Source: Thermosynechococcus sp.
Lineage (GTDB): Bacteria; Cyanobacteriota; Cyanobacteriia; Thermosynechococcales; Thermosynechococcaceae
Reading direction: 5' to 3'
DNA length: 64,000 bases
NCBI RefSeq assembly: GCF_025999095.1
Contig: NZ_AP024678.1
Span: forward strand, 310,001 to 374,000
Part shown: positions 1,267 to 27,941 of the stretch, in pieces
How positions within the stretch are numbered: position 1 is the first letter of the stretch
How the letters are laid out: the number at the start of each line of letters is the position of its first letter
Translations under genes and position numbers: made by a program
Notes under the pieces: generated by a model
Told to the model about the DNA's origin: nothing
The model's input: only the letters and a program-made list of their open reading frames with translations
The model's database searches: none

Positions 1267-3798
1267 GTGCGTGTCGTTGTCATGGCCGGTGGGAGTGGCA
1301 CTCGCCTACGCCCCCTCACCTGCGATCTACCCAAACCCATGGTGCCGGTGGTCAATCGTCCCATTGCCGAGCATATTCTCAATCTCCTGCGCCGCCATAG
1401 CCTTGATGATGTGGTCATGACATTGCACTATCTCCCCGATATCGTGCGGGACTATTTTGGCGATGGGAATGAGTTTGGGGTGCACCTGAGCTACGTCGTT
1501 GAAGAAGAGCAGCCCCTGGGCACGGCAGGGTCAGTGAAAAACATTGTCAATTTGCTCACAGATCCATTTTTGGTGGTCAGTGGCGATAGCATTACCGATG
1601 TTGATTTAACCGATGCCCTGCGTTTTCACCAGCAGCACGATGCTCCTGTCACCCTGATCCTTGCCCGTGTGCCTCAGCCAAAGGAGTTTGGGATTGTCTT
1701 TACCGATAGCGATGGCCGCGTGCGGCGGTTTCTCGAGAAGCCCTCAGCGGGGGAAGTCTTTACGGATACAGTCAATACGGGCATCTACATCCTCAGCCCC
1801 ACAGTTATGGATTACCTCAATGGCGGCATTGAGCGGGATTTTTCGCGGGATTTGTTCCCATTGCTGTTGCAGGCGGATGTGCCGATGTATGGCTATACCA
1901 CCGATGCCTACTGGTGCGATGTCGGCAGTCTCCAAACCTATCAACAGGTGCAACAGGATGCCCTCTATGGCCGAGTGCACTTGGAAATTCAGGGGCACGA
2001 AGTTCAGCCGCAAATTTGGGTAGGCCACAATACCCCCTTGCCGCAAACGGTTCAGCTACAGGCGCCGCTCGTCTTGGGCAATAACTGCCGCTTTGGTGCG
2101 GGGGTCACCCTTGGGGCGGGCACGGTCTTGGGGGATAACGTGATTATTGGCAATGGCAGTCGGTTGCGTTCAGTGGTGGCTTGGAATGGCTGCTTTATTG
2201 GGGATGACAGTGAATTGGAGCATTGCATCTTAGCTCGCTATGTCCATGTTGATCGCCATGTGAGACTACAGGAAGGGGTGATTATTGGCAGTCGCTGTGT
2301 GGTGGGGGAGGAAGCCAGTCTGAGTCAGGGAGTGCGGCTCTGGCCAGGAAAACGTATTGAAGCGGGTGCAATTGTCAATGAAAGTCTGATCTGGGGCACA
2401 ACAGGGCAGCGCTATCTCTTTGGGCAGCGAGGAGTGGCCGGCGTGGCTAATGTGGACATTACACCGGAGTTTGCCGTGCGGCTGGCGGCAGCCTATGCCT
2501 CAATTCTTGAGCCCGGAACCAGTGTGCTCGTGTCGCGGGATCAGCGCAATGTATCGCGGATGGTGTCCCATGCCCTGATGTCGGGTTTGATGTCGGTGGG
2601 GATTCAGGTTCTCAATTTGGAGGCGATCGCCCTGCCGATTGCCCGCTTCGCTGCCCAAACCCTTTCAGTCAGCGGCGGGATCCATGTGCGCGCCCATCCC
2701 GATCGCGCCGATCAGCTTTTGATTGAGTTTTTTGACCACAAAGGCATCAACCTCAGTAGAGCCAAAGAGCGGCAAATCGAAACCGCCTACTTCCGCGAAG
2801 AGATTCGCCGTGCCCTACTGATGGATGTCGGTGTCATGACCCACCCCAACAACTGCGTGGCCGCCTATGCCCAAGGCTTTGAAAAGTGGCTGAATACGCA
2901 ACTGTTTTATGGTAGCCCCGCCAAAATTGTTATTGACTATGCCTATGCCGTTTCTGGGGTTGTCTTGCCCCAGATCCTCAGTAAGTTTGGCTGCGATGCC
3001 GTTGTTCTCAATGCCACCCTCCACCCAACTCCCCTAAATATTCTGGAGCGACAGCGACTCCTGCGGGAACTGGGACAGGTGGTGACAGCCCTTTCTGCAA
3101 GTTTAGGAGTGCAAGTCTCCGCCAATGGCGAACGGTTGACCTTGGTGGACAATGCCGGTCAGGTTTTCAGTGATCAAGAACTCACGGCCTTGATGACCTA
3201 CTTGACCCTCTTGACTCATCCGGGGGGCACCATCGTGGTGCCGGTCACAACCTCTAGCGCCGTGGAGGCGATCGCCCGCCAGCAGGGAGGACACATTATC
3301 CGCAGTCGTACCAAGCCGACTGATCTCATGGAAGCCTGCCAACACCACAGTGGCGTTGTCCTAGGGGGGTCCGCAGAAACCGGTTTCATCTTCCCGCAAC
3401 TGCATCCGGGATTTGATGCCATGTTTACGATCGCCACACTGCTCGAACTGCTGGCACTGATTGGCAAGCCCCTCACAGTCATACGCCAAGAACTGCCCCG
3501 CGTCCACTACTATCACCGCCCGATTCGCTGTCCTTGGCTTGCCAAAGGGTCATTGATGCGCCACTTAGTGGAAACCCATCCCCGCAACCATTTAAGTCTC
3601 ATTGACGGCGTCAAAATTGGTGAACCCAACACTGACCATTGGGTACTGATTCTGCCCGATGCCAGTGAGCCATTGGTACACCTCTACGTGAATAGTCCTG
3701 ACGCCCCTTGGAGTGAGCAGATGCTGCAACGCTATAGCCGCCGCATTGAAGAGTTTGCCCGCTTGGAACCTCTCTCAGATGCCACAATAAAGATGTAA
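1267..3798 (+). CDS. Sugar-phosphate nucleotidyltransferase fused to a degenerate phosphohexomutase domain
   Basis: The 843-residue protein starts at GTG 1267 behind AAGGAG (1254-1259). Residues 1-235 form a GT-A-type nucleotidyltransferase with the GGSGTRLRPLT signature (8-18), as in mannose-1-phosphate guanylyltransferase or glucose-1-phosphate thymidylyltransferase. Hexapeptide-rich left-handed beta-helix sequence follows to about 380. Residues about 395-840 resemble the phosphoglucomutase/phosphomannomutase superfamily. There the catalytic TASHNP loop reads VRAHP (474-478), with no phosphorylatable Ser. The DGDADR metal loop reads SANGER (618-623), without the aspartates. The mutase half is therefore probably inactive, perhaps regulatory or structural. 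I recall cyanobacterial homologues of the same fused layout and length. The substrate (GDP-mannose is the usual annotation) is not shown by sequence alone. Confidence 0.85.
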   Translation: MRVVVMAGGSGTRLRPLTCDLPKPMVPVVNRPIAEHILNLLRRHSLDDVVMTLHYLPDIVRDYFGDGNEFGVHLSYVVEEEQPLGTAGSVKNIVNLLTDPFLVVSGDSITDVDLTDALRFHQQHDAPVTLILARVPQPKEFGIVFTDSDGRVRRFLEKPSAGEVFTDTVNTGIYILSPTVMDYLNGGIERDFSRDLFPLLLQADVPMYGYTTDAYWCDVGSLQTYQQVQQDALYGRVHLEIQGHEVQPQIWVGHNTPLPQTVQLQAPLVLGNNCRFGAGVTLGAGTVLGDNVIIGNGSRLRSVVAWNGCFIGDDSELEHCILARYVHVDRHVRLQEGVIIGSRCVVGEEASLSQGVRLWPGKRIEAGAIVNESLIWGTTGQRYLFGQRGVAGVANVDITPEFAVRLAAAYASILEPGTSVLVSRDQRNVSRMVSHALMSGLMSVGIQVLNLEAIALPIARFAAQTLSVSGGIHVRAHPDRADQLLIEFFDHKGINLSRAKERQIETAYFREEIRRALLMDVGVMTHPNNCVAAYAQGFEKWLNTQLFYGSPAKIVIDYAYAVSGVVLPQILSKFGCDAVVLNATLHPTPLNILERQRLLRELGQVVTALSASLGVQVSANGERLTLVDNAGQVFSDQELTALMTYLTLLTHPGGTIVVPVTTSSAVEAIARQQGGHIIRSRTKPTDLMEACQHHSGVVLGGSAETGFIFPQLHPGFDAMFTIATLLELLALIGKPLTVIRQELPRVHYYHRPIRCPWLAKGSLMRHLVETHPRNHLSLIDGVKIGEPNTDHWVLILPDASEPLVHLYVNSPDAPWSEQMLQRYSRRIEEFARLEPLSDATIKM

Positions 3799-3847: not shown

Positions 3848-5803
3848 GTGATTTTAAAAACGGAGAAAACCCAAGGGAGCTGGAGCGATAAATTGCGGGG
3901 AATTGCCCGTTGGTGGTCAGAATTCAAGATTCAAACCCGCCTCATGGCCACAGCAACCCTCGTGGTCTCCATCATCATGAGTGGCCTCACCTTCTGGGCG
4001 GTGAACACGATTCAAACCAATGCCCACCTCAATGACACCCGCTATGGTCGCGATTTAGGGTTACTCCTAGCCGCTGATGTGGCGCCCCTGGTGGCCAAAG
4101 GGGATACCGCCGCTGTTGCTGAATTTTCCCGTAAATTCTATGAGCGCAGTGCCAGTATTCGCTACATCCTCTATGCGGATCCCGACGGGGAAATTTACTA
4201 TGGCCTGCCCTACTCTGCCCCCCAAGTGGAAAGTGCCCTGACATTGCGCCGCCGTATTCAACTGCCAGAGACCTACCGTGCTAGCCAAGAACCCCTCGTG
4301 CGCCAACACCAAACCCCCAATGGTCTAGTTGCCGATGTCTTTGTTCCCCTAACCTTTAATGGCGAAAACTTAGGGGTTGTTGCCCTGGGGATTAACCCGA
4401 ACCCAACATTTATTGCCTCTGCCAATCTCACGCGGGATCTCACGATCGCTGTCTTTGTCTCCCTCTGGATCATGGTGATCTTGGGGGGGGTCTTCAACGC
4501 CCTCACCATTACCCAACCCATTAAAGAATTGGTGCAGGGGGTGAAAAACATTGCAGCGGGGAATTTTAAGCAACGCATTAACCTGCCCTTTGGCGGTGAA
4601 CTGGGGGAGTTGATCACCAGCTTTAATGACATGGCTGAGCGCCTCGCCTCCTACGAGGCCCAAAACATTGAAGAACTCCAAGCCGAGAAAGCCAAACTAG
4701 ACACCTTGGTGTCCACCATTGCTGATGGAGCAATTCTCTTAGATACCGACATGCGGATTATTCTTGTCAACCCCACAGCGCAGCGTCTTTTCAATTGGGA
4801 GGGGATGAACGTCATTGGCCAAAATGCCCTGGACTGCTTTCCAGCACCGGTGTGCGAAAAACTCACCTGTCCCCTTTACAAAGCCTCCCGCGGAGAGTCA
4901 GAAGGGGGAGAATTTCGGGTAACGCTGCAAGAACCTAGCTCGCGCTCAGTACGGATTCTGCTGACAACGGTTATGGATGTGCAGCGGGAAAAGCCCAAAG
5001 GCATTGCGATTACAATTCAGGACATTACCCGGGAAGTGGAACTCAACGAAGCCAAAGCACAATTGATTAGCAATGTTTCCCATGAGTTGCGTACACCTCT
5101 ATTCAATATCAAATCAATCATCGAAACGATTCAAGAGTACGGCAGCAGCCTCAGTGAAAAAGAGCAACAGGAATTCCTAGAAACCGCTAACCACGAGACC
5201 GATCGCCTGACGCGCCTTGTCAATGATTTTCTCGATATTTCCCGCCTCGAATCGGGTCGCCCCTATCAGTTTGGCTCCGTACAGATGGCGCAGGTGATTG
5301 ATCAGATCATGCGCACCTACCAACTCAATGCGGCCAATAAGTCCATTACCCTAACTGCCGAGGTGGAAACCCCCCTGCCACCGGTTTGGGGCAACTATGA
5401 TCTGCTCATTGGTGCCCTCACTAACTTGGTGGGCAATGCCTTGAAGTTTACACCCGAAAATGGACGGGTAACAATTCGTGCCTATGTCTGGCATCCCCCT
5501 AGCGATCCAGAGCAGGAACGCGTGCGCATTGAAGTGGCCGACACGGGTATGGGGATTGCCCCAGAGGATCAACCCCGTGTTTTTGAGCGCTTTTTCCGCG
5601 TCGAGAATCGCGTGCATACCCTAGAGGGGACGGGGCTGGGGCTGGCCATTGTCCAAGATATTATCCACAAGCACAATACGCAAATTCATTTAATTAGTGA
5701 ATTGGGGGTCGGTAGTACCTTTTGGTTTGATTTGGCCATTGATGAATCTGCCCTCGTTGATAACCCCGACAGCACTGCTGAAACGGCGCTTCCGCCCGCT
5801 TGA
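3848..5803 (+). CDS. nblS: Sensor histidine kinase NblS (Hik33/DspA type)
   Basis: The 651-residue membrane kinase starts at GTG 3848. TM1 is at about 33-53, an extracytoplasmic sensor domain at about 55-190, TM2 at about 197-220, then HAMP (220-273), a coiled coil, PAS (about 280-395), HisKA with SHELRTP (phospho-His412), and HATPase with NALKFTP (N box), VADTGMGI (G1), VFERFFR (F) and GTGLGLAI (G2). All catalytic boxes are intact. The domain order and length are those of NblS/Hik33, the conserved cyanobacterial kinase that acts with the response regulator RpaB on high light, nutrient and cold stress genes, including hli genes. Two hli genes lie in this window. The gene follows the fusion gene by 49 bp and may be co-transcribed. 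Confidence 0.92.
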   Translation: MILKTEKTQGSWSDKLRGIARWWSEFKIQTRLMATATLVVSIIMSGLTFWAVNTIQTNAHLNDTRYGRDLGLLLAADVAPLVAKGDTAAVAEFSRKFYERSASIRYILYADPDGEIYYGLPYSAPQVESALTLRRRIQLPETYRASQEPLVRQHQTPNGLVADVFVPLTFNGENLGVVALGINPNPTFIASANLTRDLTIAVFVSLWIMVILGGVFNALTITQPIKELVQGVKNIAAGNFKQRINLPFGGELGELITSFNDMAERLASYEAQNIEELQAEKAKLDTLVSTIADGAILLDTDMRIILVNPTAQRLFNWEGMNVIGQNALDCFPAPVCEKLTCPLYKASRGESEGGEFRVTLQEPSSRSVRILLTTVMDVQREKPKGIAITIQDITREVELNEAKAQLISNVSHELRTPLFNIKSIIETIQEYGSSLSEKEQQEFLETANHETDRLTRLVNDFLDISRLESGRPYQFGSVQMAQVIDQIMRTYQLNAANKSITLTAEVETPLPPVWGNYDLLIGALTNLVGNALKFTPENGRVTIRAYVWHPPSDPEQERVRIEVADTGMGIAPEDQPRVFERFFRVENRVHTLEGTGLGLAIVQDIIHKHNTQIHLISELGVGSTFWFDLAIDESALVDNPDSTAETALPPA

Positions 5804-27061: not shown

Positions 27062-27941
27062 GCATTCCTCCTGTTACTTCTGCCCAAACTTGCAAGAGAT
27101 ATTGGCCGTAGCTACTTTTGCGCAGGGGCTGTGCCAGTTCATAGAGTTGCTGCGGTGTGATGTAACCCCGGTGCAGGGCAATTTCCTCTAAACAGGCAAT
27201 TTTAAGCCCTTGCCGTTCCTCTAGGGTGCGAATAAAGCTACTGGCCTGTTGCAGCAGATCATGGGTACCCGTATCCAGCCACGCATAGCCCCGTCCGAGC
27301 AATTCCACCCGCAGTTGTCCCTTTTCCAGGTAAAGGCGGTTGAGGTCAGTAATTTCCAGTTCTCCCCGCGCTGAAGGTTGCAGCTGAGCGGCCAAATCGC
27401 ACACCTGATGGTCGTAAAAATATATCCCCGGCACGGCATAGTTGGACTTGGGCACTGCTGGCTTTTCCTCGATACCGAGAACGCGACCGCTGGCATCGAA
27501 TTCGATAACACCGTACTGCTGCGGATTAGCCACCCGGTAGCCAAAGATCATTGCCCCTGCTGTCAGTTGAGCTGCCCGCTGCAACTTCTCCGAGAGATCA
27601 TGGCCGTAGAGAAGATTATCCCCAAGGGTCAGGCACACGGGTTCCCCCTGCAAAAATTCGCGCCCTAAAATAAAGGCTTCCGCTAAGCCATTGGGCTGCG
27701 GCTGGACACAATAGCTGAGGGATAAGCCCCACTGATGACCATTCCCCAGAAGTTTCTCAAAAAGATAGAGGTGCTCTGGGGTGGAAATAATGAGAATCTC
27801 CCGAATCCCCGCTAGCATCAAGATGGAGAGGGGATAGTAAATCATTGGTTTGTCATAGATGGGCATCAGTTGCTTGCTGAGTACCTGTGTTAGGGGATAG
27901 AGACGTGTACCTGAGCCGCCAGCGAGAATAATTCCTTTCAT
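27030..27941 (-). CDS. rfbA: Glucose-1-phosphate thymidylyltransferase
   Basis: The 303-residue protein opens [20 protein letters not shown] with the nucleotidyltransferase signature, followed by [17 protein letters not shown] and LGDNLLYG, diagnostic of RmlA. It makes dTDP-glucose, the first step to dTDP-rhamnose. The start is ATG 27941, whose ATGA overlaps the rfbB stop; the longer frame to 28040 lies inside rfbB. It is unrelated in role to the fusion at 1267, which has the same fold at its N terminus. Confidence 0.95.

What the first reader, a model, noticed from the sequence alone, without database searches (positions are those of the whole stretch)
1267..3798. Nucleotidyltransferase fused to a mutase domain that has lost its catalytic serine and metal loop
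The PGM/PMM half carries VRAHP where the phosphoserine loop TASHNP should be and SANGER in place of DGDADR. The half is long and otherwise well kept, so it has probably been repurposed, for example as a sensor of sugar phosphates controlling the transferase.
Basis: partly seen in the sequence, partly recalled or inferred. Interest (0 to 1): 0.6.

Follow-up and report, generated by a model that had tools for sequence, protein, structure and literature searches.

The report
Sugar-nucleotide enzyme with dead mutase half
A cyanobacterial enzyme that should make an activated sugar carries a second half that folds like a sugar-phosphate mutase but lacks the parts needed for that reaction; the same loss is seen in every relative examined from four bacterial phyla, so the half has probably served another, likely regulatory or structural, role since early on, and the common 'two-in-one enzyme' reading of this family is doubtful.

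Summary
The 843-aa ORF (Thermosynechococcus chromosome) is a nucleotidyltransferase with a beta-helix, fused to a complete four-domain phosphohexomutase fold (AlphaFold pLDDT 87; TM 0.89 to Thermococcus PGM over 460 columns). Not two but all four mutase active-site loops are rewritten: phosphoserine loop, metal loop, sugar loop and phosphate loop (LPDASEP for RxSGTEP). This is no local lesion: 0 of 142 fused homologues (Cyanobacteriota, Bacillota, Actinomycetota, Campylobacterota) keep TASHNP, DGDxD or RxSGTE, while the same genome has three canonical mutases. The half is under purifying selection (dN/dS 0.02-0.12, like the transferase half) and has its own signature (CPWxxKGxxMR, DGVK, LPDxxEP), strongest in domain IV. 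The transferase half keeps its catalytic residues. So it is an old, family-wide pseudo-mutase fused to a probably active transferase. I favour a regulatory or scaffolding role for domain IV (inferred, untested). Substrate is open: dedicated ADP-Glc, dTDP-Glc, UDP-GlcNAc and GDP-Man enzymes, plus a UDP-Glc candidate, already exist here. In Bacillota relatives the gene follows a glycogen-synthase-like glycosyltransferase.

The parts
1267..3798 (+). fused nucleotidyltransferase / pseudo-phosphohexomutase gene (843 aa)
   Evidence: full-length homologues
1273..1962 (+). NTP_transferase domain (residues 3-232), catalytic motifs GGSGTRLRPLT, PKP, SGDS, FLEKP, NTG, YWCDVG kept
   Evidence: G8 G9 G11 R13 K23 D107 E157 K158 N170 W216 D218 invariant in 54 sequences
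2011..2361 (+). left-handed beta-helix (hexapeptide) domain, residues 249-365
2416..2802 (+). pseudo-mutase domain I (384-512)
   Evidence: PF02878; fold match
2674..2703 (+). remnant of phosphoserine loop: GGIHVRAHPD (470-479) in place of GG-VITASHNP
2863..3159 (+). pseudo-mutase domain II (533-631)
   Evidence: PF02879
3118..3135 (+). remnant of metal loop: SANGER (618-623) in place of DGDADR
3172..3498 (+). pseudo-mutase domain III (636-744)
   Evidence: PF02880
3361..3384 (+). remnant of sugar-binding loop (699-706, LGGSAETG); deleted in most Bacillota relatives
3499..3756 (+). pseudo-mutase domain IV (745-830), with the most conserved family-specific motifs
3529..3561 (+). family-specific motif CPWLAKGSLMR (755-765), absent from canonical mutases
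   Evidence: 99.5th percentile of windows in this half
3604..3615 (+). DGVK (780-783)
3652..3672 (+). LPDASEP (796-802) in place of the phosphate-binding RxSGTEP loop

Best explanation
The protein is a sugar-1-phosphate nucleotidyltransferase of the GMPP/CugP type, probably catalytically active, permanently fused to a pseudo-phosphohexomutase. The mutase half has kept the whole four-domain fold but lost all four active-site loops, so it cannot run the phosphoserine mechanism. It has been kept by selection in a non-catalytic role that I infer to be regulatory or architectural: domain IV, with its new CPWxxKGxxMR / DGVK / LPDxxEP surface, and the H-x-R and E of the former serine and metal loops, would hold the transferase-beta-helix part in an assembly, or bind an effector other than a hexose phosphate, and so set its activity. 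Shown here: architecture, loop loss, family-wide extent, constraint, intact transferase motifs. Inferred: transferase activity, regulatory or scaffolding role, the part played by domain IV. Unknown: the sugar and the nucleotide.
For: Domain calls. Loop alignments and 0/142 with TASHNP, DGDxD or RxSGTE. Full mutase fold predicted, TMt 0.89, rmsd 2.5 A over 460 columns to 9du5, 0.88 to 1wqa. dN/dS of the pseudo-mutase half 0.019-0.116 against 0.039-0.087 in the transferase half. New motifs in the 99th percentile of conservation. Transferase catalytic residues invariant in 54 sequences down to 34% identity. Three canonical mutases elsewhere in the genome (GlmM, alpha-PGM, a third PGM/PMM-like), all with ASHNP and DGDxD, so no need for mutase activity here. 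Precedent for a dead paralogue regulating a sibling sugar-nucleotide enzyme: GMPPA on GMPPB (PMC11228364).
Against: No experiment shows transferase activity or regulation for any member. Disruption of S. coelicolor SCO1388, described with the same architecture, gave no phenotype, alone or combined with either of the other two pyrophosphorylase candidates (PMC5982138). One Synechocystis substrain carries a frameshift in sll1496 (PMC10068330; that sll1496 is the orthologue is from memory), and one relative (L061) has an in-frame loss of about 230 residues of the mutase half, so the role is dispensable at least there.
Confidence: 0.55

Rival explanations
1. Sugar-phosphate sensor: the former mutase cleft still binds hexose phosphates and controls the transferase allosterically.
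For: Complete cleft-forming fold kept; some ancestral cleft positions remain conserved, GG-H-R in the old serine loop and E622 in the metal loop; DGVK kept.
Against: Phosphate loop RxSGT replaced by LPDxx in essentially all members and sugar loop degenerate or deleted, the two loops that grip substrate in canonical mutases.
Confidence: 0.2
2. Purely structural: the half only sets oligomeric state or tethers a partner enzyme (for example the adjacent glycosyltransferase in the Bacillota), with no small ligand.
For: GMPP-type enzymes are oligomeric; 17 of 20 Bacillota loci have a GT4 glycosyltransferase directly upstream, gaps -85 to +124 nt; conserved surface motifs without an obvious ligand loop; the PDB holds complexes of GlmM with the cyclase CdaA, so mutase folds do bind partner proteins (7olh, 9g69).
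Against: No conserved neighbour in cyanobacteria; invariant polar W/K/R/D residues are more than a pure scaffold needs.
Confidence: 0.25
3. Truly bifunctional enzyme with unusual mutase chemistry (for example phospho-His477, or Ser in some members), as the database annotation implies.
For: SCO1388 is described as apparently bifunctional (PMC5982138); 52/142 have His and 28/142 Ser at the column.
Against: The column varies freely (H, S, D, gap, A, V; conservation 0.38); metal-loop Asp residues and the phosphate loop are lost together; dedicated mutases exist in the genome.
Confidence: 0.04
4. A decaying leftover of an old fusion, without function.
For: Loops lost; one in-frame deletion (L061) and broken or split copies in a few genomes.
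Against: dN/dS 0.02-0.12 and invariant residues across four phyla.
Confidence: 0.03

Closest known systems
alpha-D-phosphohexomutases, archaeal PMM/PGM/GlmM type (1wqa, 9du5; TIGR03990)
   Same: Four-domain fold over full length (TMt 0.88-0.89), best HMM match 242 bits
   Different: All four catalytic loops replaced; score far below the family cut-off (439 bits)
Mannose-1-phosphate guanylyltransferases (GMPPB 7d72, Rv3264c-type NF052502) and cyanobacterial CugP (8x7s, Tlr0611)
   Same: NTP_transferase plus beta-helix, catalytic motifs kept
   Different: Below NF052502 cut-off (264 vs 440 bits); carries an extra 460-aa pseudo-mutase; substrate not established
SCO1388-type / 'mannose-1-phosphate guanyltransferase/phosphomannomutase' fused proteins (KEGG K16881, from memory)
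   Same: Same architecture; Streptomyces plasmid homologues 38-39% identical over full length
   Different: Described as bifunctional; these sequences say the mutase half is not a mutase
GMPPA/GMPPB pair of animals
   Same: Non-catalytic homologue of a sugar-phosphate enzyme regulating an active nucleotidyltransferase
   Different: There the dead partner is a nucleotidyltransferase paralogue on a separate chain; here it is a fused mutase fold

Membership tests
alpha-D-phosphohexomutase (as an active enzyme) | Four-domain PGM/PMM fold | tested here: met
alpha-D-phosphohexomutase (as an active enzyme) | Phosphoserine loop T/S-A/G-S-H-N-P | tested here: not met
   GGIHVRAHPD; 0/142 homologues
alpha-D-phosphohexomutase (as an active enzyme) | Metal loop DGDxDR | tested here: not met
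   SANGER; 0/142
alpha-D-phosphohexomutase (as an active enzyme) | Sugar loop GEESG in domain III | tested here: not met
   GGSAETG here, deleted in most Bacillota
alpha-D-phosphohexomutase (as an active enzyme) | Phosphate loop RxSGTEP in domain IV | tested here: not met
   LPDASEP; 0/142
alpha-D-phosphohexomutase (as an active enzyme) | Mutase activity | not testable with these tools
   needs assay
Sugar-1-phosphate nucleotidyltransferase (PF00483) | GxGTRLxPLT, PKP, D of SGD, EKP, second D motif | tested here: met
Sugar-1-phosphate nucleotidyltransferase (PF00483) | Pyrophosphorylase activity | not testable with these tools
   needs assay
Mannose-1-phosphate guanylyltransferase (NF052502) | Curated score cut-off 440 bits | tested here: not met
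   264 bits; substrate left open
GMP-PMI / ManC (TIGR01479) | This protein as the genome's GDP-mannose source | tested here: not met
   a separate canonical GMP_PMI lies at G000:C1:811886-813292, 718 bits
GMPPA-like regulator | Binds a metabolite and regulates the transferase | not tested
   analogy only

The most novel reading that the evidence does not exclude
A widespread, ancient class of sugar-nucleotide synthase whose built-in pseudo-mutase acts as an allosteric receptor for a metabolite other than hexose phosphates (or for a partner glycosyltransferase), reading it through the rebuilt domain IV / serine-loop face, in most cyanobacteria outside the picocyanobacteria and in many Clostridia and actinomycetes.
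Probability: 0.3. Interest if true: 0.68.

Novelty: new variant of a known kind. Interest (0 to 1): 0.46.

Why it matters
The fused family was found in about 141 of 386 sampled Cyanobacteriota genomes and in roughly half of 250 sampled genomes of the phylum of a Clostridia relative, and is read as a bifunctional transferase/mutase (for example SCO1388). If the mutase half is dead throughout, pathway reconstructions that count it as a phosphomannomutase are wrong, and a large group of uncharacterised sugar-nucleotide enzymes would share an unrecognised regulatory or scaffolding domain. It would also be a clear case of a phosphohexomutase pseudoenzyme fixed by fusion, with a defined motif to mutate.

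Tried and rejected
Recent or local loss of the serine: rejected, loss is family-wide. Alternative serine loop elsewhere: no TASHNP-like motif anywhere in any of 142 sequences, and the old loop sits in its expected place between two predicted strands, 470-476 and 483-490. Fused relatives with an intact serine loop that would show the order of events: none found. GDP-mannose supply as the reason for the fusion: weakened, the genome has its own canonical GMP_PMI, and the gmd/manC presence survey did not split cleanly along fusion presence. Conserved neighbour in cyanobacteria: none; the NblS-like kinase downstream is adjacent only in Thermosynechococcaceae. A GT4 partner in this genome: only generic 30% hits. 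Phospho-His477 as nucleophile: column not conserved. Literature on the pseudo-mutase: searches found none; the open-access library is incomplete.

Full report
What is there. The ORF 1267-3798 (+) encodes 843 residues in a Thermosynechococcus chromosome of 2.50 Mb. Residues 3-232 are an NTP_transferase domain, 249-365 a hexapeptide beta-helix, and 384-830 a PGM/PMM fold of four domains.

The loss is complete. Aligned to P. horikoshii PMM/PGM and to the three canonical mutases of the same genome, four loops differ: GGIHVRAHPD for GG(A/L)xITASHNP, SANGER for DGDADR, GGSAETG for GEESG, and LPDASEP for RxSGTEP. Without the phosphoserine, the three metal-binding Asp and the phosphate-gripping Arg-x-Ser-Gly-Thr, the established phosphohexomutase mechanism cannot operate (established knowledge of the family).

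It is a family property. Full-length fused relatives occur in about 141 of 386 sampled Cyanobacteriota genomes (my count of full-length matches; absent from family f19, whose 1.6-3.7 Mb genomes suggest marine picocyanobacteria, and from f31), in roughly half of 250 sampled genomes of the phylum of a Clostridia relative, and in Streptomyces, Nonomuraea and Sulfuricurvum. Of 142 fused sequences none has a TASHNP-like, DGDxD or RxSGTE motif. The serine column holds His (52), Ser (28), Asp (20) or gaps (10) among others. The 28 serines are not followed by His and come with DxNxE-type loops, so they are not canonical either. No fused relative with an intact mutase half was seen.

It is not junk. 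Pairwise dN/dS of the pseudo-mutase half is 0.019-0.116, against 0.039-0.087 in the transferase half. AlphaFold2 on 54 homologues gives mean pLDDT 86.7, and the half matches T. kodakarensis PGM over its full length (TMt 0.89, rmsd 2.5 A, 460 columns). Conservation has moved: domain IV carries CPWxxKGxxMR (755-765), DGVK (780-783) and LPDxxEP (796-802) at the 99th percentile of windows, the GG-H-R of the old serine loop is at the 96th, and the sugar loop is at the 1st. The CPWxxKGxxMR motif is absent from the canonical mutases aligned.

The transferase half looks alive. G8, G9, G11, R13, K23, D107, E157, K158, N170, W216 and D218 are invariant in 54 homologues. Nearest solved structures are CugP (8x7s, Tlr0611) and GMPPB. 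The substrate is open. The score against the mycobacterial-type mannose-1-phosphate guanylyltransferase model is 264 with a cut-off of 440, and the genome already holds GlgC, RmlA, GlmU and a canonical GMP_PMI plus a CugP-type protein.

Context. In Thermosynechococcaceae an NblS-like histidine kinase lies downstream, but no neighbour is conserved across cyanobacteria. In the Bacillota loci a GT4 glycosyltransferase closest to glgA_Coryne is directly upstream on the same strand in 17 of 20, with a GH57 branching enzyme within about 6 kb in 10 and a DUF4912 protein in 10. That points to alpha-glucan-like polymer synthesis there, so an NDP-glucose product is plausible in that branch (inference). 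The 20 loci were drawn from the best matches, not at random.

Literature. SCO1388 of S. coelicolor, described with the same architecture, is called apparently bifunctional; its disruption had no phenotype alone or in double mutants with the other candidates (PMC5982138). sll1496 of Synechocystis carries a frameshift in one substrain (PMC10068330). No paper on the dead mutase half was found in the open-access library. SCO1388 and sll1496 themselves were not aligned here; their membership rests on the paper's domain figure and on memory respectively.

Mechanism. Best supported: active transferase plus a pseudo-mutase kept for regulation or assembly through domain IV. The sugar-phosphate-sensor idea loses weight because the substrate-gripping loops are those lost. 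Which of regulation or scaffolding applies cannot be settled without biochemistry.

Noticed in passing
window 3848-5803 (+): Sensor histidine kinase with HAMP, PAS, HisKA and HATPase domains (NblS/Hik33-like by architecture) directly downstream; adjacency holds in Thermosynechococcaceae only.
   Followed up: partly
L194, L196, L198, L202, L203, L206, L208, L210: Recurrent Bacillota cluster: GT4 glycosyltransferase (glgA_Coryne-like), fused pseudo-mutase transferase, GH57 branching enzyme, DUF4912. Looks like an uncharacterised alpha-glucan synthesis set.
   Followed up: partly
L061 (G249:C1:1084000-1090000): A fused gene with an in-frame loss of about 230 residues (443-674) of the pseudo-mutase half, a natural truncation useful for testing need for the half.
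   Followed up: partly
L060, L065, L058: Fused gene split or truncated: two overlapping frames in L060, a frame change or loss of the C-terminal part in L065 and L058; sequencing error not excluded.
   Followed up: partly
window 27396-27935 (-): A second nucleotidyltransferase, RmlA-type, lies in the same window.
   Followed up: yes
G000:C1:1075638-1076342: A nucleotidyltransferase-like match with one TAA inside, possibly a broken glucose-1-phosphate cytidylyltransferase gene.
   Followed up: no
plasmid hits H7-H11 (not fetched as loci): Archaeal plasmids carry adjacent, separate glmU and glmM genes similar to the two halves; such a pair could be the source of the fusion.
   Followed up: no
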